Positions 478-23,916 of a stretch of 37,483 bases of DNA are shown here, one piece after another; positions within the stretch are counted from its first letter, which is position 1, and the number at the start of each line of letters is the position of its first letter. The position numbers and the translations under genes were made by a program. Origin of the DNA: a bacterium (GTDB lineage Bacteria > Patescibacteriota > Patescibacteriia > UBA1558 > UBA10009); assembly GCA_018672055.1 (NCBI GenBank), contig JABHGM010000001.1:571494-608976 (forward strand), read 5' to 3'. Under the pieces are notes generated by a model. The model ran no database searches and was not told where the DNA came from. It saw only the letters and a program-made list of their open reading frames with translations.

Positions 478-2454
478 ATGAAAATAAATAAAATATTATT
501 AATATTAATCATTTCTTTTTTTTGTACTCAAAATCTGTATGCTTATGATAACTTACCTAATGATCCAGAATTAGAAAAATTATTTTATCTTCAAAATATT
601 AAAGCTTTAAATGCTTGGGAAATTAATGCAAAAAGCCCTGATGTTGTAGTCGCTGTTATAGATACTGGAGTTGATATATATAATCCTGACTTAGAAGGAA
701 ATATATGGATTAATACAGATGAAGTTATGGCTGATGGTATTGATAATGATGATAATGGATATATTGATGACTACTATGGCTGGGATTTTATAATTTCATC
801 ACCTGACCCTCGTCCTAAGTTTCATACTAAAAAAAATAAGATTGGAATTATACATGGTACTATTGTAGCTGGAGTAATTGGAGCTCGGGGGAATAATGAT
901 TTTGGAGTAACTGGACTTACTTGGGAAACTAAAATTATGTCTCTTCGCGCTTTAAACGCTGTTGGTTCTGGTGATATGGAATTTACTATTGAAGCTATTT
1001 ATTACGCTGTAGATAATGGTGCAGATATTATTAATTTAAGTATCATAGGAGATGCTTTTCATGATGAATTAGAAAAAGCAATTAAATATGCTTATGACAA
1101 TAATGTAGTCTTAGTAACAGCTGCAGGTAATAATGTAGAAGGTGAAGCAGAAATGGACCTTGATATTTTACCTCGTTATCCAGTTTGTATTGATTCAAAT
1201 AGAAATTATGTACTAGGCGTTGGTTCAGTTAATCCAGATGATGAAAAATCATATTATTCTAATTATGGTTCAGATTGTCTTGATTTAGTAGCTCCTGGTG
1301 AAAATATATATAGTCTTAGAGTTTATGAACCAATTTTTGGTGATTATCAAGAATATTTTGGTGGCTATTACTCTGGTACTTCAATGGCAGCACCTTTAGT
1401 TAGTGCTACTGCTGCCCTTATAAAAGGTTTAAGACCGGAACTATTAAATTATGAAATATATGATTTAATAATAAATAATACTGATGATATAGATAATTTA
1501 AATTTAAAATACAAGACAAAATTAGGAAGTGGTAGATTAAATACTTACGAGTCATTATTAGCAGCTGCTTCATATGAATCTGAAGTTATGACTACTTACT
1601 TAGCACCTAAGTCTGGTTTTAAACCAGAAGTTAGAATTTTTAATAATGAAGGTCAGGTTATAAAAAGCTTTTTAGCATATAATGAAAATTTTATCGGAGG
1701 TGTTAATTTAGCTTCTGCTGATTTAGACGATAATGGAATTAAAGAGATTATAACTGGAGCAGGTACTTCGGGTGGTCCGCACGTTAGAATATTTAATCAG
1801 AATGGGGAAGTATTAAAACAATTTTTTGCTTATGATATTAATTTTGATGGTGGTGTTTTAGTTGATGCTGGAGACGTAGATAATGATGGAGAAATTGAAA
1901 TAATTACTGCACCTCAAAAAAATGCTAAACCTTTAATTAAAATATTTAATTCTGATTTAGAATTAGAATCTGAATTTTTGGCTTTTGATGAAAGTTATCG
2001 AGGTGAATTAAATTTAACATTAAGTGATATAAATGGTGATGGTAGTAGCGAGATAGTTGTTAATTCGGGTCAAGAAGTTAAAATATTTACAAATAGTGGT
2101 AAGTTAATTCATAAATTTAATATATCTGTAAATAATTTATCTAATGATGTTAGAGTTATAGCTTCCAATCTATATGGTGATATACGTAGTGAGTTTATAG
2201 TAATAGCTGGTACTACTGATAAAGCTTTTGTAAATATATTTAGTACAACTGGTAACTTAGAATATAGTTGGCAGGCATTTAATGAGTTTGATTTACATGA
2301 CTTAGATATAGCTGTGGGTAATTTTAACAAAGGACCAAATAAAGAAGTATTAGTTATTAATAAGAATCTATTAAGAGTATATAGTTTTAATGGTGAGTTG
2401 CTAGATGAATTAGTTGTTGATTATAATAATCAAGGAGTAAATATTGTATATTAA
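478..2454 (+). CDS. Secreted S8 (subtilisin-like) serine protease with C-terminal FG-GAP/VCBS-like repeats
   Basis: An N-terminal signal peptide (about residues 1-22, hydrophobic core then 'LYAYD') precedes a subtilase domain. The catalytic triad is visible as Asp62 ('AVIDTGVD'), His126 ('HGTIVAGVIGA') and Ser302 ('GTSMAAPLVSA'), with the oxyanion Asn218 in 'AAGNN'. There is no obvious long pro-domain: only about 30 residues lie between the signal peptide and the catalytic domain. Residues from about 370 to 658 form repeats with acidic 'D.DDNG.KEI' and 'DVDNDGEIEI' loops, typical of FG-GAP/VCBS beta-propellers that bind calcium. It should act outside the membrane, perhaps processing surface proteins. 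It starts 3 bases after the preceding stop with no Shine-Dalgarno. The family call is firm; the substrate is unknown. Confidence 0.9.
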   Translation: MKINKILLILIISFFCTQNLYAYDNLPNDPELEKLFYLQNIKALNAWEINAKSPDVVVAVIDTGVDIYNPDLEGNIWINTDEVMADGIDNDDNGYIDDYYGWDFIISSPDPRPKFHTKKNKIGIIHGTIVAGVIGARGNNDFGVTGLTWETKIMSLRALNAVGSGDMEFTIEAIYYAVDNGADIINLSIIGDAFHDELEKAIKYAYDNNVVLVTAAGNNVEGEAEMDLDILPRYPVCIDSNRNYVLGVGSVNPDDEKSYYSNYGSDCLDLVAPGENIYSLRVYEPIFGDYQEYFGGYYSGTSMAAPLVSATAALIKGLRPELLNYEIYDLIINNTDDIDNLNLKYKTKLGSGRLNTYESLLAAASYESEVMTTYLAPKSGFKPEVRIFNNEGQVIKSFLAYNENFIGGVNLASADLDDNGIKEIITGAGTSGGPHVRIFNQNGEVLKQFFAYDINFDGGVLVDAGDVDNDGEIEIITAPQKNAKPLIKIFNSDLELESEFLAFDESYRGELNLTLSDINGDGSSEIVVNSGQEVKIFTNSGKLIHKFNISVNNLSNDVRVIASNLYGDIRSEFIVIAGTTDKAFVNIFSTTGNLEYSWQAFNEFDLHDLDIAVGNFNKGPNKEVLVINKNLLRVYSFNGELLDELVVDYNNQGVNIVY

Positions 2455-15423: not shown

Positions 15424-15485
15424 AATAAAAAAGCCCGAGGTAAAACCAAGGGCTTTTGTAATATTTATTAAAATATTACTTATTT
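15424..15485. repeat. Direct repeat, 62 bases, terminator plus stop-codon region, copy 1
   Basis: Bases 15424-15485 are identical to 17813-17874 (offset 2389). The repeat contains the terminator hairpin, an AT-rich tail with a second small inverted repeat, and the stop and last lysine codon of the minus-strand gene. Identity stops abruptly at the next codon upstream in the gene. Confidence 0.95.
15429..15457. terminator. Bidirectional rho-independent terminator between convergent genes (copy 1)
   Basis: An 8-base-pair stem (AAAAGCCC at 15429-15436 with GGGCTTTT at 15450-15457) has T-rich sequence on both outer sides. It lies between the end of the plus-strand operon at 15413 and the end of the minus-strand secreted-protein gene at 15480, so it can end both. 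It is the same sequence as the hairpin at 17818-17846. Confidence 0.85.
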
Positions 15486-17606
15486 TACTAATACTATTTT
15501 TTGTAGTTCAGTAAAATTTCCAGCAATCATACTAACTAGGTAAATACCACTTGAAAAATCTGTGGCATTCCAGGTTATTTGATAATTACCAGATATTTGG
15601 TATTCATTGACTAATGAATATACTTCGCGTCCTGATATATCGTATACTATTATACTTACATCAGAATCATGAGGTAGATCATAGCCAATAGTTGTTATTG
15701 GATTGAATGGATTGGGATAGGCAGGAGATAGTTTGAATAAACTAGCTGTCTCAACTATATTTGTTGGAACTTTATTTCCAAGCCAATCAGCTACTATTGC
15801 TTTTTCAATTTTCATCTCACCGGAGTATTCGAAAACTATTTCATTTAATTCTGAACCATCCATACTAATCATGATAATCTCATTACCATTTTGTTTCATT
15901 ATCCAACCATTTGGATAGTTGGTAATAGTGAAATCGCCAGTTGTTAGTAGCTGTATGCCTGCAATATCTCCATCAACTTTGAGTGAGCCGTTGTTAAACA
16001 GGAGATTAATTAATTCAGGAGATGATCTTCCTACAGGTTCATCAATAATTATGAACAGTATTTGTACTGCATCTAAAACATTGATTTCATTATCTTCGTT
16101 CATATCACTAGCCCAGAACGTATATTCAGAACTGATTATTGTTTCAAGTGCTATACCAATTACTTGTACCAGATCCACTACATCAATTTCTTCATTGCCA
16201 TCAATGTCACCTTTCATGCCTACTTGGATAGAACCAGAATCAGCAACAGTCAGATTTAGTGGTTGTCCTTCAGAATTACTTACAGAATATTCACCAATGT
16301 AAAATTCAATATTACTTCCTGGAATAGCATCCTCATTGACATATCCCGTAATTATTAAATTTTCCAAGTAATATCCTACCCATTCACCATCCTCTTCAAT
16401 TACTTGATTAAATGGATTTTGAACTCCAATGAATTCATATGTACCACCAAAATCAGCAGCATATGAGAATTCAAATGAAGACTCATGTTGCCAGAATGTA
16501 ACTGCATTTGGGGAGTCGATTAGTTCGAATTGGATTCCAGGAAGAGGATAATCTGAAACAATATTGATAATCAATTCAGTGTGTTCATTTGGAATTGTAT
16601 AGCCATTAATAATAAACATACCTATATTCTCTTCTCCATCAGTTATGAAGATTTCAGGACCCACGGCTGGTAATTGATGCGTGTGAACTTCAAAACCATA
16701 CATACTATCTTTTAAGATGAAATTATCCTCTTCAATTGATATATGGATAATTTCATTTAGCTCAGCATCTGGATCAACGTCGGCTGCCAAATAGAAGAGG
16801 AAATTACTTTCACTTGGTAATCCATAGTTAGGTTCAATTATATAACCATTTTCAATAGTATTACCATAGAGAAAATTTACTTGATTTTCATAGTCATTGA
16901 GGCTATTATATAATCTAATATTTTGAAGGCTTTCAATACTAGAAATAGTAAAGTTAACAGCTTCAAAGTGAAGATTATTTTCCATTACATAACCTCCAAA
17001 TTCCCATAACAAGACATTTTGATCGCCAGGTTGAACAGAAATATCATTAAATTCATAACCGGAACTATTTATATAAGCATCACCGACTTCAGCATTGCCA
17101 ATAGAAATTACATTTCCTATTATCATTAAGTTATCATCTGGATTCATATCTTCATAGATTACTTCAAGTATTTCATTATGAGTATTTCTTGCAAATACTT
17201 CAGATATACCTAGGTAAAATGTGTCACCTGCAGATGGCATCGCAACATCAAGCGTAAATGTAAATGTATAATTGGTTTCTGAAAGATACAATCCCTCAAA
17301 AAGAGCTACATCATTATCAAAACTTGATAGCGAAGCAAATTCTGTCCTTTCAGGACCAAAGTTTTGCCATATGGTAATATCTGAATATTGAATAGATTCT
17401 GTTGACCCACTGATTGTAGCAGCAAATCCATCAAGTAATACGTTGTATTCAGAATCAATAACCATATCTACAATTAGTACGGGAGCGTTATTTGCTAGCC
17501 TTGCACAGGTATATGAACCTTGGTTATTTTCATTTAAAGAAAGCGTTAGTGTTTGAGCATGTCCGATGGACATTATTAACATAAGTGTAAAGACGATATT
17601 TTTCAT
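15480..17606 (-). CDS. Secreted protein with dockerin-like repeats and type IX secretion C-terminal sorting domain
   Basis: A 708-residue protein. A signal peptide (residues 1-17, ending 'SIGHA' before Gln) precedes beta-rich domains of unknown type up to about residue 455. Two dockerin-type calcium loops follow ('GDIDGNEEIDVVDLVQ' near 462 and 'SDMNEDNEINVLDAVQ' near 500). A cohesin-like domain comes next, with 'VDGDIAGIQLLTT'. The last 80 residues are a Por/T9SS sorting domain: 'AYPNPFNPITTIGYDL' near 628, 'VYDISGREV', 'GNYQITWNATDFSSGIYLV' and a terminal 'KIVLVK'. An AAGGAG ribosome site lies 5 bases before the ATG, unlike most neighbours. G+C is visibly higher than in the flanking operons. 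No T9SS machinery gene is seen in the window, so how it is exported or anchored is open. Confidence 0.85.
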   Translation of the reverse strand: MKNIVFTLMLIMSIGHAQTLTLSLNENNQGSYTCARLANNAPVLIVDMVIDSEYNVLLDGFAATISGSTESIQYSDITIWQNFGPERTEFASLSSFDNDVALFEGLYLSETNYTFTFTLDVAMPSAGDTFYLGISEVFARNTHNEILEVIYEDMNPDDNLMIIGNVISIGNAEVGDAYINSSGYEFNDISVQPGDQNVLLWEFGGYVMENNLHFEAVNFTISSIESLQNIRLYNSLNDYENQVNFLYGNTIENGYIIEPNYGLPSESNFLFYLAADVDPDAELNEIIHISIEEDNFILKDSMYGFEVHTHQLPAVGPEIFITDGEENIGMFIINGYTIPNEHTELIINIVSDYPLPGIQFELIDSPNAVTFWQHESSFEFSYAADFGGTYEFIGVQNPFNQVIEEDGEWVGYYLENLIITGYVNEDAIPGSNIEFYIGEYSVSNSEGQPLNLTVADSGSIQVGMKGDIDGNEEIDVVDLVQVIGIALETIISSEYTFWASDMNEDNEINVLDAVQILFIIIDEPVGRSSPELINLLFNNGSLKVDGDIAGIQLLTTGDFTITNYPNGWIMKQNGNEIIMISMDGSELNEIVFEYSGEMKIEKAIVADWLGNKVPTNIVETASLFKLSPAYPNPFNPITTIGYDLPHDSDVSIIVYDISGREVYSLVNEYQISGNYQITWNATDFSSGIYLVSMIAGNFTELQKIVLVK

Positions 17607-17656
17607 CTTTTCTCCTTTTCTTGTTTATTTATTCTTTTATCAACGTTCGGTAACAT
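17603..17656 (-). CDS. Possible 17-residue upstream reading frame in the leader of the 17606 gene
   Basis: On the minus strand an ATG at 17656-17654 opens a frame starting M-L-P-N-V-D-K and ending in TGA at 17605-17603, overlapping the ATG of the secreted-protein gene by four bases (ATGA). A weak AAAGG site lies about 10 bases before it. The same first seven residues (with E for D) begin a mini-frame in the second leader at 21624, but that one stops after seven codons. Expression is unproven; it could be a leader peptide or chance. Confidence 0.3.
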   Translation of the reverse strand: MLPNVDKRINKQEKEKR

Positions 17657-17816
17657 AAATACTTAACCTTTTAAAAAAGGTATTGAATTATGTTCATTTT
17701 ATTAATTTTTTAGTGTTATTTTACTTAAATATATTGACGAATAACTTATATAAGTTATTACGTATATTATTAGTAAATAACGTAAAATATAGCAAAAATA
17801 GTATATTTTGTCAATA
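17624..17816 (-). repeat. Conserved promoter-leader repeat, copy A
   Basis: This stretch matches 21592-21784 with two single-base gaps and, by hand alignment of the 176 bases from 17641, about 13 mismatches. The 43 bases at 17641-17683 are identical in both. In transcript order it holds the promoter, a perfect 20-base palindrome (17740-17759), a hairpin (ACCTTTT/AAAAGGT near 17667-17682), a mini reading frame and the ribosome site. It gives the gene an untranslated leader of roughly 170 bases, while other genes here have almost none. Confidence 0.9.
17786..17814 (-). promoter_or_regulatory. Strong sigma-70-type promoter for the 17606 gene
   Basis: On the minus strand TTGACA (17814-17809) and TATATT (17791-17786) are 17 bases apart, an exact -35 box with a near-consensus -10. 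The -35 box abuts the terminator of the upstream cassette. The predicted transcript start is near 17779. Confidence 0.8.
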
Positions 17817-17874
17817 AAAAAGCCCGAGGTAAAACCAAGGGCTTTTGTAATATTTATTAAAATATTACTTATTT
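17813..17874. repeat. Direct repeat, 62 bases, terminator plus stop-codon region, copy 2
   Basis: Identical to 15424-15485. Its left edge overlaps the end of leader repeat A, so the repeats define a cassette unit: promoter-leader, gene, terminator. Confidence 0.95.
17818..17846 (-). terminator. Rho-independent terminator of the 21573 gene (copy 2)
   Basis: The same hairpin as at 15429-15457: AAAAGCCC (17818-17825) pairs with GGGCTTTT (17839-17846). On the minus strand it is followed by a run of T. It separates the first cassette from the promoter of the second. Confidence 0.85.
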
Positions 17875-20800
17875 CAGTAAAACTACTTTTTGAGTTTTGT
17901 TGAAATTTTCTGCTACCATCGAAACTAGGTAAACGCCAGATGGTAAATCATTGGCATTCCAAGTTATTTGATAGTTACCAGAATTTTTCTGTCCTTCGTA
18001 AAGAACAGTTATTTCTTTGCCATTCATATCATAGACTATGATTTGAATAATAGAATCATCTTTTACTGAATATTCAATCGTAGTTACTGGATTGAATGGA
18101 TTAGGGTAAGGAGCATTAAGTTTGAAGTTATTAGGAATAACTTCGTTAATTGGAATTTCATTTCCTGACCAATCAACAAGTAGAGCATCAACTATGTTTA
18201 GATTACCAGTATATTCAAATATTATATTTGGTAATTCTGAACCGTCAGCGCTTATTGCTAATATGGTATTTCCATTTTTTTCAAACATCCAACCATGAGG
18301 TAGGAAAATTTGATTAATTTGGAAATCTTCGGAAACTTTGAATTGAAATCCAGCAATGTCACCGTCTGCTTCAATCTTAAACTGATTATTATCTACTGAG
18401 ATTGTTGCCTGTGAAGGTAACGATCGTCCTAGATCAAGTTGCAGAATAGCATCAACCAGTAGAACTACATCAACTATATTAAGAGTTCCATCTTCATTCA
18501 TATCAGCAAGTAGGAGTTGATACTCTGTCGGTAAGTTGAATATCCAGCTTATTAATTGAACGATGTCTACGATATTAATCATGCCATCATTATTCAAATC
18601 ACCTCTGAGATCAGCACCACTACAACTGAGTATTCTAACTACATCAAGTTGATTTATGAGGTGGCCATTGAACCAGTCCATTGAACTGAGCCAACCATCA
18701 TCATTAGTGTCGGTATGAAAGTTATTACCATCAGTACCAGTCATGTCTGACCAAATCATATATGCACCAGTACCATCATTCTCACCATCAGAACTTAGAC
18801 AATATTGTCCAGGTCCTAGATCCATATCTTCACCTTCACAAGATGGTTCAAGATACATTGGTGGAAGATAATCGGTGTCACCATCATACATATATGTTGC
18901 GATTTGATCACAGCTACCAGCGCCTGTATTTACATTATCGGCTGCAGCCTTCAAAATGTAGTACTTTGAAGTCCCAGCAGGAATTAATCGATCATCATTG
19001 AAAACAAGGAATATATCATGAATACTTATTGATTCATCGTAGTAAAGATAATCAGTCAAAGCAGTAAGTTCAGTGCCTGGATAGTTTCCATGGAATATCT
19101 GATAACTGTCAGCTCCTGATGATCCTGCAATAAGCAGAGTAGCATCTTCATAACTATTTCCTTCATAGATTTGAAAGTTGCTTAGCCTTAATAAATTACC
19201 TGTTGGAATATCATCCAATAAGTTTAATTTAAAACCTTGCTTCTTATAACCTATGGAAGTATTAGCTTCTGCAGCTTCAACTCGCCAACGATACAGTTCT
19301 GCTGGACCGTTGAAAAAAATTGTGCTGGTTTCAGTATCAGGAGTGATAGTTGGAACATTACCATGAACAATCATATCATTACCATAAATATTCCAGTTAT
19401 TACTAGTAGCAGTAAAAATTGAACCAGATTCACCATGAGCTTCAAAGTTATCATCATAATCAAATTTAGCATTTATTACATCACCAGTATACGCTTCATA
19501 TGTTTGGTTGATAATTGGGACACTAAATGTAACTTCAACAATTCTTGAGCTATTAACAGGTATAAATAATGGATTTGATGTGATATCAAAGTCCATATTA
19601 CCAAATAGTTGAACTACCTCAGCAACAATTTCTTCACCAGCTTCATTTTGATACCTAATTGTTCCTAAATCAACTGATCGATTGAATAGATTACCATTGT
19701 CTTGTCTAATACGAAGCTTGTTAACATGAAATGACTCATTAGTAGCTTGGAAGTTTAGATTAAGCATAGGAACATCATAAGTACCAGCAATAATATTCGT
19801 AGTAACAGGTTGATCCCATCCAGTAACATTTAATGTGCCAGCATTAGTGATTTTTAATCGATATGAGTTATTGAATGAAGACGATGAACCATTGACATCA
19901 GTGATAGACCAAGAAGTGCCATCGTTATCAGTTAGAGTAACATTATTTCCATTCGAATCAACTATTATTAAATCATAAATAGTTGCAATATTAACCTTTA
20001 TATACTTATTACCTGGGAAGGTAATTGAGTATGCATTATGAGCGATATCACCAACAACTTTCATTATATGAGTTTCGTTAACAGGAATGATCATGTTCAT
20101 ATCGTTAAATGAAGCAGCGCCGGTAGTTGAACTAAAAGCCTCTATAGTTTCATTTAGGTTAGTGGTCATATTTGGGTCAACTGTAATATCATATAGTCTT
20201 AAGTTTGAAACCATGTCACTGATATATACATATTCACCATCACCAGTGCCTTGTCTTCTGACCATACAATTTATAGGATCTATACCAATATATCCATAGA
20301 GAGTAAGTGATGAAATGGTCATGTCAGAACCTGGTCCAGCATTAAAAGCAATTTCTCCAAGATTTATATTAGTAAGACCTTGAACAACGTTAACCTCTGC
20401 CGGGTTTGATGCTAATGCAACACCAAGTGATGAAGCTACTACCGTCATATGATTACCTTGGGTATAGGTTGATGGTGTGATATCTGTTATCCATTCATTA
20501 GTATCTGTATTTAACATCCCGTTTAAAGGACTGATTGAATATGGAGTTTCAGGTGATGTATACCATTGACCAGTAGATCCAAGTACAGAATAGTAACCAC
20601 CAACTGAATTATTCCCAAGATCCATAATGATAGCAAAGTTTCTGGTTTGACTTGTATAGAAATCAAATGAGTCTGTAAAATCGTAATATACACCATTATC
20701 ATCGTTGTTAATGTTCATAAAATCTGAGCAATCGACTGATGCAGTACTTTCGCCATTATCAGTGTCTACAATATGAATATTATAGATCCCTTCTGTACAT

Positions 20801-21573
20801 GATAACGAAGATGTATCAAGATCAGTGGACCATTCATGTAATTCAACTCGGAGGCTTTGAAGTTCTGAATTTGTTCCAGCAGTTATAGAGAATTCCATAA
20901 AGGTAACATCATTTGTACCATATCCATAAACATTTGGTTCAGGACCTAAGAATTCTACATAAACACTATTTTCACCAGATTCAGGTATTACCGCTAGATT
21001 AGCACCATATATGATTTCATCATTTGGCCATAGGTAAGTGACTTCAGGATTATAATCCCATTCTTCGGGAATGAAGAAGAATTGTCCTTCAGTACCACCT
21101 AGATTTTCAGTATAGATTCGTAAGCTAATTGAGTTAGCTTCATCAGGCATTAGATAGAAAGCTGTCTGTTCATTAAAGAACATAACTTGTGACCAACCAC
21201 TATCATCCGTCAAATGATACGAAGAAACCATTGGAGTAATCGGTTCACCATCATATCCAAGTATTTCTGCATAGAAACTACTTGAACCGATTGAACCATC
21301 AGCATAGAACTTCATATTTTGAATATATGTCTCGATATTGTTGTAGATATCTAAGCTGATTACAGTATAGGGCAATCCGGCAGGGATTTGCCCATCTTCA
21401 TGACTTTCGTAAAAAGCTACAACTCCTTCATCCCGAGTATTCAGTTCAGGTGTATTATTAACCAGTTCCATGATATCCAGATCTGGATTAACACTAGAAA
21501 CTAGGTTGTATTCGGTATCAATTCCAGCAAACATTACTGAAATAACGATCAATGGAATAAATAATGTTTTCAT
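17869..21573 (-). CDS. Large secreted protein with dockerin-like repeats and type IX secretion C-terminal sorting domain
   Basis: A 1234-residue protein. A signal peptide (about residues 1-17, 'LIVISVMFAG') is followed by a long, repetitive, beta-rich region to about residue 930 with no domain I recognise. An EF-hand-like 'DTNDDGWLSSMDWF' precedes two dockerin-type loops near 989 ('GDLNNDGMINIVDIVQL') and 1022 ('ADMNEDGTLNIVDVVLL'). A cohesin-like domain follows ('ADGDIAGFQFKVS'). The C-terminal sorting domain starts at 'PYPNPFNPVTTIEYSV' near 1154 and ends 'KVVLLK'. From the dockerin pair onward it parallels the 708-residue neighbour, while the N-terminal parts differ. A GGGG-type ribosome site ('AAAGGGGAAATAA' then ATG) is present. 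Likely a cell-surface or released structural protein; function unknown. Confidence 0.85.
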   Translation of the reverse strand: MKTLFIPLIVISVMFAGIDTEYNLVSSVNPDLDIMELVNNTPELNTRDEGVVAFYESHEDGQIPAGLPYTVISLDIYNNIETYIQNMKFYADGSIGSSSFYAEILGYDGEPITPMVSSYHLTDDSGWSQVMFFNEQTAFYLMPDEANSISLRIYTENLGGTEGQFFFIPEEWDYNPEVTYLWPNDEIIYGANLAVIPESGENSVYVEFLGPEPNVYGYGTNDVTFMEFSITAGTNSELQSLRVELHEWSTDLDTSSLSCTEGIYNIHIVDTDNGESTASVDCSDFMNINNDDNGVYYDFTDSFDFYTSQTRNFAIIMDLGNNSVGGYYSVLGSTGQWYTSPETPYSISPLNGMLNTDTNEWITDITPSTYTQGNHMTVVASSLGVALASNPAEVNVVQGLTNINLGEIAFNAGPGSDMTISSLTLYGYIGIDPINCMVRRQGTGDGEYVYISDMVSNLRLYDITVDPNMTTNLNETIEAFSSTTGAASFNDMNMIIPVNETHIMKVVGDIAHNAYSITFPGNKYIKVNIATIYDLIIVDSNGNNVTLTDNDGTSWSITDVNGSSSSFNNSYRLKITNAGTLNVTGWDQPVTTNIIAGTYDVPMLNLNFQATNESFHVNKLRIRQDNGNLFNRSVDLGTIRYQNEAGEEIVAEVVQLFGNMDFDITSNPLFIPVNSSRIVEVTFSVPIINQTYEAYTGDVINAKFDYDDNFEAHGESGSIFTATSNNWNIYGNDMIVHGNVPTITPDTETSTIFFNGPAELYRWRVEAAEANTSIGYKKQGFKLNLLDDIPTGNLLRLSNFQIYEGNSYEDATLLIAGSSGADSYQIFHGNYPGTELTALTDYLYYDESISIHDIFLVFNDDRLIPAGTSKYYILKAAADNVNTGAGSCDQIATYMYDGDTDYLPPMYLEPSCEGEDMDLGPGQYCLSSDGENDGTGAYMIWSDMTGTDGNNFHTDTNDDGWLSSMDWFNGHLINQLDVVRILSCSGADLRGDLNNDGMINIVDIVQLISWIFNLPTEYQLLLADMNEDGTLNIVDVVLLVDAILQLDLGRSLPSQATISVDNNQFKIEADGDIAGFQFKVSEDFQINQIFLPHGWMFEKNGNTILAISADGSELPNIIFEYTGNLNIVDALLVDWSGNEIPINEVIPNNFKLNAPYPNPFNPVTTIEYSVKDDSIIQIIVYDMNGKEITVLYEGQKNSGNYQITWNANDLPSGVYLVSMVAENFNKTQKVVLLK

Positions 21574-21591
21574 TTATTTCCCCTTTATTTG

Positions 21592-21784
21592 TTTACTTAT
21601 TCATTTTTCAACGTTCGGTAACATAAATACTTAACCTTTTAAAAAAGGTATAGAATTATGTTCTTTTTTTAATTATTTATTGTTATTTTACTTAAATATA
21701 TAGACGTATAACCTATATAAGTTATTACGTATATTATTAGTAAATAACATAGAAATATAGCAGAAATAGCTTATTTTGTCAATA
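21592..21784 (-). repeat. Conserved promoter-leader repeat, copy B
   Basis: Partner of 17624-17816. The palindrome (here 21708-21725) has one change that leaves a G-U pair on the transcript. A mini frame M-L-P-N-V-E-K runs from 21624 to a stop at 21601. The 43-base block at 21609-21651 is identical to that in copy A. Confidence 0.9.
21754..21782 (-). promoter_or_regulatory. Strong sigma-70-type promoter for the 21573 gene
   Basis: On the minus strand TTGACA (21782-21777) and TATATT (21759-21754) have a 17-base spacer, the same layout as the promoter at 17786-17814. The predicted start is near 21747, giving a leader of about 170 bases. Confidence 0.8.
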
Positions 21785-21825: not shown

Positions 21826-23916
21826 TTAATTAACGTATTCAAATATATAGTTTTTACCATCAATAGCATACCAGTAATCAGCACTTTGCTTATGTTCTAA
21901 GATCCTGTCTTTAGCATCAAACCAATAATCATTTATTACTAAGTAAATAGTATTAACATCAGTTAAATATCTAGCAGTAGCAATAACATCTACTGTTTTT
22001 TCTTTAGCATAGGCTAAGTCTTCATATAATTCATATAATCTGTTGCCTGTAGGTACTGGGTAAAAGTAGAAATCATTATGATAATATTTATAACTAAGCT
22101 CAGAAATTGCAGAAGCAGAAACTGGTTGAGCAGCTAGAACTATGTATGGTCTACCTTGATTTAAGTTTTCTAAAAAGTTAACTGTTTTAATATCAGTAAC
22201 AGATGTTGAAAAACCATGATCCTCACTTATCTTATCAATTCTTGGATATGAAAGATAAAAAGAGGTGGTAAAGGCTAAAGAAATTAAAATAGTGGAGAGA
22301 AGAATAAAAGTGGAACTTTGTTTTAATAGTTTATTAATTAATAAATAGAAAGCTAAAATGATGAGAGGCAGTAAAAAGTAAAGACTCATTTCTAAAACTC
22401 GAATAGGATAATTTTGTTGTTCGTGAGATAGCAAACTAAAAAATGAAATACCTGTAACTAGTATTAAATAATTAGCTAGCATGATTAAAGTCATAACTGG
22501 ATAAATACTAAAACGTTTAAATCTTTTTTTAGTAATTAAAAATATTACAGTAATAGCTATTAAAAATACTAAGAATGCTATTATGTTATACCCATAGTTA
22601 TATATTAAATCATAAATTGAAATAAAAGGACGATAGAATAATGAGTAATCTTGATTACTTAAAACAGTAGCTAAGTTTTGAGTCCAATTACTATTTAAAC
22701 CAACTTTCATTTCTGATAGTGTTTGGGAGTTAATAAAAAAGGCAAAAGGCAAGGCAAAAAAAGAAACAACTACTATTTCCCAGAATATACTTTTACTTAA
22801 AAGTTTAGGCAGAGTAAGTCTAGATCTATGATATATAAATAGTAAAACAATAAAAATAATACAGGGTATACCAGCTAAAGGATGAATAGCTAGAGTCATG
22901 AGCGATAGTAGAGCAAGTGGCCAAATAGCAACCTTAGGATGAGATATAAAGTAAATACCTAAAAATATAGTAATTAGTAGAAATACATTAGCTAAAGCTT
23001 GAGGTGTAGTAACAATAAAATTAGTAAATGGTATAGCTAGAAGTAAAAAGATAATTAGTAAAATGGTTTTTTCTTTTATTTTAAAATTATTTTTAAGAGC
23101 ATAGTAAATAGTAAGTGGTATATAAACAGCAGACATAAGTGGTACTAGTATCTTATCTATATTAATAACTGAAAAGTTAAATAATTTATGTAAGTATATT
23201 ATTAAACTATATTGCCCAATGTAATAAAATGGCTTAGGTAGCAGAGTACCTGATTCCAAAATTAATTTAAGATTAGCTCTATGTATAAAAGGATCATAAT
23301 CAAAACCTACTTGGTAAGTAATAACAGCAATAATAGAACTAATAAAAAAATGTAATATTATTAAAGTTAAGTAATTACCTTTTTTATTAAATATTAATAA
23401 GTTAAGTAAAATAAAAGAAGCAATAAAGTAAATAAAGAATATTTGACTAGGTATTACTTCCCATGGAGATCTAATACTAAGTCCAGTTCTAGAATTAAAA
23501 ACTAAAAATGTAATTATTGATAATAGTATTAAATAGATTAAAACAAGAATTAATTTTTTTAAATTAAACTTAGTTTTTATTTTCTCTGGAAAATCAATTA
23601 ATAGAGGATACTTAATAATTATTGGTAAATAAAGTAATGGAATAATTAGTAAGTTGAATAAAAAAGTTAAATCATTTAATTTAAATAAATAAAAACAAAC
23701 AGTATTAATTAAACTAGCAATTACCAGAGTAAATAATATGCCAAAGAATATTTTACATGGATAAGAATTTTTTATAAATAGATAATTACCCAGTATTAAA
23801 GAAATATATATTAAATATAAAAGCCCAATAAGTAATTTAAAAGGGAATACTATAATTAAAACAATTAGTATTAACGAGATTAGTAAATGTTTCTGCCAAT
23901 TAATTAAATAAGTCAT
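21826..23916 (-). CDS. Multi-pass membrane protein, probable GT-C-type glycosyltransferase
   Basis: A 696-residue protein, mostly hydrophobic, with roughly 13-16 predicted membrane helices and a soluble C-terminal part of about 130 residues. After the early helices, an outside loop contains 'VGFDYDPFIHRAN', resembling the acidic D-x-D active-site motif of GT-C transferases, followed by 'YYIGQYSLIIYLH'. GT-C enzymes move sugars from polyprenyl-phosphate donors to acceptors outside the membrane, and the two DPM/ALG5-like GT2 enzymes in the glycan operon could make such donors. Its base composition and lack of a Shine-Dalgarno match the host-like genes, not the cassettes beside it. The GT-C call rests on topology and one motif. 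Confidence 0.6.
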   Translation of the reverse strand: MTYLINWQKHLLISLILIVLIIVFPFKLLIGLLYLIYISLILGNYLFIKNSYPCKIFFGILFTLVIASLINTVCFYLFKLNDLTFLFNLLIIPLLYLPIIIKYPLLIDFPEKIKTKFNLKKLILVLIYLILLSIITFLVFNSRTGLSIRSPWEVIPSQIFFIYFIASFILLNLLIFNKKGNYLTLIILHFFISSIIAVITYQVGFDYDPFIHRANLKLILESGTLLPKPFYYIGQYSLIIYLHKLFNFSVINIDKILVPLMSAVYIPLTIYYALKNNFKIKEKTILLIIFLLLAIPFTNFIVTTPQALANVFLLITIFLGIYFISHPKVAIWPLALLSLMTLAIHPLAGIPCIIFIVLLFIYHRSRLTLPKLLSKSIFWEIVVVSFFALPFAFFINSQTLSEMKVGLNSNWTQNLATVLSNQDYSLFYRPFISIYDLIYNYGYNIIAFLVFLIAITVIFLITKKRFKRFSIYPVMTLIMLANYLILVTGISFFSLLSHEQQNYPIRVLEMSLYFLLPLIILAFYLLINKLLKQSSTFILLSTILISLAFTTSFYLSYPRIDKISEDHGFSTSVTDIKTVNFLENLNQGRPYIVLAAQPVSASAISELSYKYYHNDFYFYPVPTGNRLYELYEDLAYAKEKTVDVIATARYLTDVNTIYLVINDYWFDAKDRILEHKQSADYWYAIDGKNYIFEYVN

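What the first reader, a model, noticed from the sequence alone, without database searches (positions are those of the whole stretch)
15424..21784. Two tandem expression cassettes sharing promoter, leader and terminator, with different surface proteins inside
Seen directly: each minus-strand unit is a strong promoter, a roughly 170-base leader, a secreted protein gene and a terminator. The promoter-leader regions are about 90% identical and the terminator regions identical over 62 bases, yet the N-terminal protein regions do not match. The units interrupt a plus-strand glycan island. This looks like a duplicated, possibly recombining cassette for swapping surface proteins under one regulatory frame. 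It may be one example of a larger family spread over the genome.
Basis: partly seen in the sequence, partly recalled or inferred. Interest (0 to 1): 0.75.

Follow-up and report, generated by a model that had tools for sequence, protein, structure and literature searches.

The report
Tandem surface-protein genes sharing regulatory frame
A tiny-genome bacterium related to Komeilibacteria carries two neighbouring surface-protein genes whose start and stop signals are nearly identical although the genes between them are very different, and one gene is a hybrid of the group's own surface-coat-like protein and a tail typical of another phylum.

Summary
P1 (15480-17606, minus, 708 aa) and P2 (17869-21573, minus, 1234 aa) each have a near-consensus promoter, a ~173-nt leader and a terminator-like 3' end. 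Upstream blocks are 90% identical over 224 nt, 3' blocks identical over 62 nt. The N-terminal regions do not align; the last 249 aa do (45%): dockerin plus T9SS-type sorting tail (CTD). There synonymous sites are near saturation (pS 0.65), so one plain duplication cannot explain the conserved frame: recombination or very strong selection on the non-coding parts is needed. The full leader has two copies in the genome and none was found in 379 other genomes of the class, so a dispersed family of this leader is not supported; other CTD genes in relatives do share upstream regions within a genome (5 of 42 pairs). The genome belongs to the order of a Ca. Komeilibacteria genome (Patescibacteria). 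P2 is a chimera: residues 210-982 match at 50% the C-terminal 788 aa of the genome's own 1351-aa surface-layer-like protein, followed by a module whose best listed relatives outside the order are Neomarinimicrobiota. The T9SS translocon SprA was not found. Frame sharing by recombination, with chimeric surface proteins inside, is judged most likely. Active swapping is unproven.

The parts
21754..21782 (-). promoter of P2, TTGACA-17-TATATT with extended -10
   Evidence: one of 7 exact matches to the promoter pattern in the genome
21574..21747 (-). P2 5' leader, about 173 nt; predicted 5' hairpin about 21681-21749; inner hairpin ACCTTTT/AAAAGGT in the invariant block
   Evidence: first 95 nt: 0 of 200 shuffles fold as well; whole leader: 11 of 200
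17869..21573 (-). P2, 1234 aa: signal-like N-terminus, unassigned part to about 203, surface-layer-like core, dockerin, CTD
18628..20946 (-). P2 residues 210-982: homologous to residues 563-1350 of the genome's 1351-aa surface-layer-like protein (50% identity)
17872..18609 (-). P2 C-terminal module (residues 989-1234): dockerin 991-1043 plus Por_Secre_tail 1156-1231
17813..17874 (-). P2 3' block from the last codon to the T-run: AT-rich hairpin, then G+C-rich stem with T-run; identical to P1's
17786..17814 (-). promoter of P1, overlapping P2's 3' block by two bases
17607..17779 (-). P1 5' leader, about 172 nt; predicted hairpin about 17715-17781; invariant block 17640-17683
   Evidence: first 95 nt: 7 of 200 shuffles fold as well; whole leader: 3 of 200
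15480..17606 (-). P1, 708 aa: signal-like N-terminus, N-terminal part without a relative in 379 other class genomes, dockerin, CTD
15483..16217 (-). P1 C-terminal module (residues 464-708): dockerin 465-515, Por_Secre_tail 630-705
15424..15485 (-). P1 3' block, identical to P2's
21826..23916 (-). neighbour, not part of the repeat: 696-aa membrane-protein-like ORF upstream on the same strand; no Pfam or NCBIfam hit; its 3' end abuts P2's promoter region

Best explanation
Two tandem genes encode secreted, probably surface-displayed proteins of a Komeilibacteria-like Patescibacterium, and recombination has kept or put them in the same regulatory frame. Each unit is a strong sigma-70-type promoter, a long leader that begins with a hairpin (inferred to stabilise the mRNA and support high expression), the gene, and a double-hairpin 3' end. 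The reading frames have histories of their own. P2 is the C-terminal 58% of the lineage's own surface-layer-like protein fused to a dockerin-CTD module whose best listed relatives outside the order are in Neomarinimicrobiota; P1 carries a divergent copy of that module on a different N-terminal part. Leader and terminator copies were homogenised by conversion between the direct repeats, or were copied when a cassette duplicated and one reading frame was then replaced. Shown: the anatomy, the mismatch between coding and non-coding divergence, the chimera. Inferred: recombination as the cause, high expression, surface display.
For: Non-coding 90%/224 nt and 100%/62 nt against pS 0.65, dS about 1.5 in the C-module and pS 0.51 in its last 80 codons. 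Identity falls sharply at the ORF edges and outside promoter and T-run, as expected where homology ends. The paralogues share the leader, while the four other genomes of the family show no match at E 1e-5, although G002 has a P2 relative at 47% over residues 579-988. C-module: P2+C509 924 and P1+P2 26 of 1000 bootstraps. Shared upstream regions of at least 70 nt: 5 of 42 within-genome pairs of CTD genes, 0 of 309 between-genome pairs, 12 of 4703 within-genome pairs of other genes in fetched loci of the same 8 genomes (Fisher p 2e-7, and 2e-4 without P1/P2 and the confounded G002 pair). Chimera. Module relatives.
Against: No other strain of the species or genus was available, so exchange was not seen. 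Strong purifying selection on leader and terminator could give the same picture. One of the 5 sharing pairs (G002 g2f/g2g) lies among repeats or a larger duplication; two others align only 72 and 91 nt at 75-78%. The AU test does not reject a P1+P2 clade (p 0.106). Hairpin support is uneven: first 95 leader nt, shuffles folding as well: P2 0, P1 7, C929 12, C509 48 of 200, and no consistent pattern in the relatives folded. The 12 control hits include one CTD-like case, the tandem small secreted genes at 806-807 kb.
Confidence: 0.58

Rival explanations
1. One old tandem duplication; the coding parts diverged freely while leader and terminator were held by strong purifying selection (for example as sites of a common regulator, or RNA elements). 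No recombination after the duplication.
For: The conserved blocks end at functional borders (promoter, start codon, stop codon, T-run). A 44-nt block with a hairpin is invariant. P1 160-307 shows a weak match to the surface-layer-like profile, 6.8 bits (best domain 6.3), E 0.0032, against a best of -0.9 bits in 50 shuffles, so the N-terminal parts might be very distant relatives.
Against: The leader was not found in the 4 family relatives or the 379 other class genomes, so its sequence turns over fast between genera, yet is 90% kept between paralogues whose synonymous sites are near saturation. P1 1-463 matched only itself in 380 genomes, while P2 1-988 matched 72.
Confidence: 0.27
2. An active antigenic-variation or phase-switching locus in which surface-protein genes are exchanged through the shared upstream and downstream sequences, like relapsing-fever Borrelia vmp genes.
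For: Shared promoter-leader and shared 3' block with inverted repeats around unlike genes; direct repeats flank P2 (leaders, 3968 bp apart) and P1 (3' blocks, 2389 bp apart).
Against: No silent archive: 2 copies of leader and terminator; both units have promoter and start; no recombinase among the 27 of 35 ORFs scanned; one assembly, no reads.
Confidence: 0.1
3. Recent duplication followed by fast coding change under positive selection.
For: The frame looks young.
Against: Synonymous sites are near saturation (pS 0.65); positive selection does not change silent sites.
Confidence: 0.03
4. Assembly or binning artefact: the region comes from a Neomarinimicrobiota-like contaminant.
For: The listed outside relatives of the C-module are mostly Neomarinimicrobiota.
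Against: One 946,732-bp contig, contamination estimate 0.06%; P2's core is a paralogue of the genome's own protein; PF18962 matches 24 of 53 genomes of the relatives search, own included; the module's best listed match is a Komeilibacteria contig.
Confidence: 0.02

Closest known systems
Relapsing-fever Borrelia vmp genes with upstream and downstream homology sequences (UHS/DHS)
   Same: Sigma-70 promoter and inverted repeats near conserved upstream and downstream sequences around variable surface-protein genes (review PMC4534519, section 1.4, read).
   Different: There: about 30 gene copies, an expression site and shown switching. Here: two units, each with its own promoter, and no archive found.
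Anaplasma Msp2 expression cassette; Ehrlichia map-1/omp tandem genes
   Same: Conserved 5' and 3' ends around a variable part; for Ehrlichia, tandem mostly complete genes with functional promoters (passages of PMC4534519).
   Different: Anaplasma has pseudogene donors, not seen here; Ehrlichia has 17-22 family members, here two genes whose N-terminal parts do not align.
Type IX secretion system (T9SS) type A cargo proteins
   Same: C-terminal Por_Secre_tail/TIGR04183 domain above the cut-offs.
   Different: No SprA match in 53 genomes, own included, although the same search rings in 3 of 3 non-Patescibacteria genomes; no C25 peptidase in this genome.
Surface-layer-like ~1250-1400 aa proteins of this class (family found here, unnamed in Pfam)
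   Same: P2 210-982 is homologous to its C-terminal part, up to the penultimate residue.
   Different: P2 lacks its N-terminal 560 residues and ends in a dockerin and CTD.
Lactobacillus slpA/slpB S-layer gene pairs
   Same: Recalled: paired S-layer genes with conserved ends.
   Different: Recalled from memory; papers on it were seen only as a search listing.

Membership tests
T9SS cargo (type A CTD) | C-terminal sorting domain at the end of the protein | tested here: met
   PF18962 42.4 and 42.7 bits (cut-off 27), TIGR04183 40.8 and 43.2 (cut-off 23), ending 2-3 residues from the C-terminus
T9SS cargo (type A CTD) | Signal peptide for Sec export | tested here: inconclusive
   Lysine plus hydrophobic stretch at the N-terminus of both (hydropathy 3.0 each); no signal-peptide predictor was available
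T9SS cargo (type A CTD) | T9SS translocon (SprA) in the same genome | tested here: not met
   PF14349: 0 of 53 genomes, own included, the built-in controls silent too; positive control with the same family: 3 of 3 non-Patescibacteria genomes ring, 0 of 1 Komeilibacteria
T9SS cargo (type A CTD) | PorU-type C25 sortase | tested here: not met
   PF01364: none in the own genome; 2 of 53 genomes have it, G002 (in a 1279-aa frame that also has a CTD) and G022. None of the 14 built-in controls rang; sensitivity is shown only by these two genomes
Antigenic-variation cassette (vmp/Msp2 type) | Homologous sequences up- and downstream of the variable genes | tested here: met
Antigenic-variation cassette (vmp/Msp2 type) | Archive of silent or donor copies | tested here: not met
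   2 leaders, 2 terminators in the genome
Antigenic-variation cassette (vmp/Msp2 type) | Observed switching in a population | not testable with these tools
   One assembly, no reads, no congener
Known cis-regulatory RNA family | Match to an Rfam model | tested here: not met
   No gathering-level match in the window; with E up to 5 three matches, E 3.3-4.4, all below the gathering scores
Surface-layer-like protein family of this class | Homology of P2 to the conserved ~1300-aa family | tested here: met
   72 of 380 class genomes, own included, match P2 1-988; 50% over 799 columns to the own paralogue
Surface-layer-like protein family of this class | Forms a lattice on the cell | not testable with these tools
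   The name 'surface-layer-like' is inference from size, signal-like sequence, spread and neighbours
Dockerin type I | Match to the dockerin profile | tested here: met
   PF00404 24.2 and 30.4 bits, cut-off 22.9; dockerins of solved cellulosomal proteins match

The most novel reading that the evidence does not exclude
A modular surface-display locus in a Patescibacterium without the T9SS translocon: whole reading frames are exchanged between shared promoter-leader and terminator frames, and a tail acquired from Neomarinimicrobiota-like bacteria serves there as an anchor or export signal independent of the known T9SS, here put onto a truncated copy of the cell's own surface-layer protein.
Probability: 0.2. 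Interest if true: 0.85.

Novelty: new variant of a known kind. Interest (0 to 1): 0.58.

Why it matters
How Patescibacteria build and change their cell surface is, to my knowledge, poorly understood. The locus links three testable questions: whether a T9SS-type tail can work without SprA, how surface-layer-like proteins give rise to new display proteins, and whether regulatory frames are shared by recombination while the proteins inside are replaced. Five literature searches listed no title or abstract beginning that treats T9SS-type tails in Patescibacteria. The library is partial and the listings were too: 10 of 23 papers, 15 of 180; of the listed papers only PMC9530719 was opened, for two passages.

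Tried and rejected
Leader as a dispersed family: not supported for this leader. The strong promoter as a marker of secreted genes: 75 sites with up to 2 mismatches against 33 for the pattern read backwards; among the 30 sites that came with loci the genes downstream are of mixed kind, many but not all with hydrophobic N-termini (three of the 30 were read in the wrong direction by my script: L196, L197, L203). Known RNA family: none. Hairpin leader as a common feature: uneven support in the own genome and no consistent pattern in relatives. Full-length homology of P1 and P2: BLASTP finds only the C-terminal 249 aa; a weak profile match of P1 160-307 to the surface-layer-like family is kept as a hint; hhalign in the same run gave no meaningful alignment, and one of its options was not understood. 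Structure of P1 18-463 from one sequence: useless, mean pLDDT 35.8. Structure of P2 20-985 with 13 rows: mean pLDDT 68.4, first 181 residues below 50, otherwise almost all beta; PDB matches (integrin, pilin, antigen I/II and other beta-sandwiches) have Z at most 9.3 and mostly poor superposition, and show only tandem beta-sandwich domains; no family is claimed and none is excluded. A 14-mer shared by both leaders and the leader of the surface-layer-like gene is a weak hint (BLAST E 0.02 among 11 upstream regions).

Rows dropped, merged or limited. The first version of the sharing test held 28 genes, one of which (g24b) has no PF18962 match; one search repeats it with 27 (5 of 42 within, 0 of 309 between). 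Three small secreted genes without CTD were left out of both, and so were the CTD genes of G004, G011 and G018, fetched, which had one gene each in the fetched regions. The 27 genes lie in 8 of the 24 genomes with a match. Start codons were the first ATG of each frame, which misplaces some leaders (seen for G022 and G024). The control used 203 upstream windows, many of them partly coding. The C-module tree used 15 of the 80 loci plus P1, P2 and C509. Searches drew 380 genomes from a larger group and scored at most two or three candidates per genome.
Full report
Observation. The two minus-strand units are present as described. Each begins with TTGACA-17-TATATT (21782-21754 and 17814-17786), has a leader of about 172-173 nt, a reading frame and a G+C-rich stem with a T-run. 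Upstream blocks are 90.2% identical over 224 nt; 3' blocks are identical over 62 nt. The 3' block of P2 runs directly into the -35 box of P1. The programmed terminator scan did not flag either stem, and the total of promoter-like sites (51) is not above shuffles (60.0); only these two reach 11 of 12. The terminators are read from the sequence.

Proteins. P1 and P2 have signal-like N-termini, a type I dockerin (PF00404) and a Por_Secre_tail (PF18962, TIGR04183), the last two above their curated cut-offs. BLASTP aligns only the last 249 residues (45%, E 4e-62). A third gene of the genome, C509 at 156653-158182, shares this module (43% with P1, 42% with P2), and a fourth, C929 at 771072-773861, shares the CTD.

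Age of frame and content. In the C-module the proportion of synonymous differences is 0.65 (dS about 1.5, Nei-Gojobori with Jukes-Cantor, 242 codons), in the last 80 codons 0.51. Non-coding blocks at 90% and 100% are far more alike than silent coding sites. Identity drops at the start and stop codons and outside promoter and T-run. This excludes a plain duplication with equal divergence. Recombination or strong selection is left. For recombination: the leader was not found in the four other genomes of the family or the class (380 genomes, own included; three others show promoter-sized matches of 31-51 nt), though a G002 protein is 47% identical to P2 over 579-988. For selection: the borders are functional borders. 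In the tree of the module P2 joins C509 in 924 and P1 in 26 of 1000 bootstraps; the AU test does not reject P1+P2 (p 0.106).

Copies. By pattern with up to 3 mismatches the leader core occurs twice in the genome. By BLAST the third-best place in the genome, 77% over query 11-72 (E 1.3e-6), is the promoter and the very start of the leader before a small secreted-like protein at 779 kb; P2's upstream region also aligns with that of a small secreted gene at 806 kb, 79% over 57 nt. The terminator has two copies. So the strong promoter recurs, the full frame does not.

Recurrence in relatives. Of 27 CTD genes in 8 genomes, 5 of 42 within-genome pairs share at least 70 nt upstream, 0 of 309 between-genome pairs do (the first version had 28 genes with one that lacks a CTD match: 5 of 44 and 0 of 334). 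Among other genes in fetched loci of the same 8 genomes 12 of 4703 within-genome pairs do (one of these is the tandem small secreted pair at 806-807 kb). Fisher p is 2e-7 against that control, 2e-4 without P1/P2 and without the G002 pair, which is confounded by repeats around both genes. In the G009 pair the downstream side is shared, 96% over 101 nt. CTD genes stand next or close to each other in 6 of the 8 genomes (G000, G002, G003, G013, G022, G024).

Organism. The genome is one contig of 946,732 bp, 96.6% complete. A genome of the same order, G015, is Ca. Komeilibacteria CG_4_10_14_0_8_um_filter_37_78: the fetched stretch is 100% identical over 3228 bp to that record. In one search (best 80 of a capped search) the module's best match is this Komeilibacteria contig, then Neomarinimicrobiota; further down also Rhodothermota, Latescibacterota, Balneolales and others over the CTD. 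In the tree, P1, P2 and C509 group together (92/88) amid Neomarinimicrobiota rows, with 8 of 15 forks open. Transfer from that phylum or a relative is likely; direction and donor are not shown. PF18962 matches 24 of 53 genomes of the relatives search, own included, 23 over the cut-off.

The chimera. P2 1-988 matches 72 of 380 class genomes, own included, mostly in frames of about 1200-1450 aa. The own paralogue (L233:6053-10108, 1351 aa, no Pfam family) aligns at 50% with P2 210-982, from residue 563 to its penultimate residue 1350; in P2 the dockerin module follows within a few residues. Its neighbours are a sigma-70-family (ECF-like) factor, a DUF5667 protein and a Wzy_C protein. I call it surface-layer-like by inference. 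P1 1-463 matches only itself in the 380 genomes, with a weak profile match at 160-307. In another genome of the class, G107, an S8 peptidase and sugar genes homologous to those of this window stand directly beside a surface-layer-like gene, which fits a link between island and surface layer.

T9SS. SprA_N was not found in 53 genomes. Because no control rang there, the search was checked on three non-Patescibacteria genomes, all positive, and one Komeilibacteria genome, negative. C25 peptidases occur in 2 of 53, not in the own genome. So the tails are T9SS-like, but membership in a working T9SS is not met on the two parts tested; other T9SS parts were not tested.

Mechanism. Most likely: two surface proteins under a common frame kept alike by recombination between direct repeats. 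The repeats flank P2 (leaders, 3968 bp apart) and P1 (3' blocks, 2389 bp apart), so recombination could also delete or multiply a unit (inference). The leader's 5' hairpin may protect the mRNA (first 95 nt, shuffles folding as well: P2 0, P1 7 of 200; whole leaders P1 3, P2 11 of 200). The closest known arrangement by works-like is the Borrelia vmp UHS/DHS pair (PMC4534519, section read), but no archive and no switching are seen here, so it is not filed there.

Literature. Searches. PMC4534519 was seen as passages and one section, PMC9530719 as two passages, all others as listings with the start of their abstracts.

Noticed in passing
L233:6053-10108 (G000:C1:762052-766107, minus) and relatives L234, L235, L238-L243: A ~1250-1400 aa secreted, surface-layer-like protein family without a clear Pfam model (three members scanned), in 72 of 380 class genomes by the P2 search. 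A sigma-factor gene stands nearby in L233 (Pfam) and, by eye only, in L238, L239, L241, L242 and L243.
   Followed up: partly
L233, L234, L238-L243, up to 420 nt upstream of the surface-layer-like genes: Leaders carry GGTCG in 8 of 8 loci with enough upstream DNA (a ninth row, L217, is a truncated copy of L238); AAGGTCG in 6 of the 8, against 4 of 203 upstream windows of mixed genes, one of the 4 being the own surface-layer-like gene. No Rfam match in the six loci searched. Possible leader RNA element.
   Followed up: partly
G000:C1:806507-807085 and 807212-807784 (L073): A second tandem pair of small secreted-like proteins (192 and 190 aa) with own promoters; upstream 85% over 121 nt, dS 0.56.
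   Followed up: partly
G000:C1:779141-779539 (L071): Small secreted-like protein of 132 aa behind an exact match to the promoter pattern, with 77% likeness to promoter and leader start of P1.
   Followed up: no
G002:C9:8558-9850, G022:C30:531-1568 and G022:C4:2433-2690: C25 (gingipain-type) peptidase domains in or beside CTD genes of two relatives.
   Followed up: no
L087 and L088 (G002): Several dispersed repeats or a larger duplication around two CTD genes on different contigs.
   Followed up: no
L233 minus strand 10379-10366; window minus strand 17666-17653 and 21634-21621: 14-mer TTAAGTATTTATGT after a hairpin in the leaders of the surface-layer-like gene, P1 and P2; its first 13 bases occur only there in 135 kb of held own DNA.
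   Followed up: partly
window 478-2454 and L241:3483-5123: S8 peptidase beside sugar genes, in G107 directly beside a surface-layer-like gene.
   Followed up: partly
window 21826-23916: 696-aa hydrophobic, membrane-protein-like ORF without Pfam or NCBIfam match, same strand, just upstream of P2.
   Followed up: no
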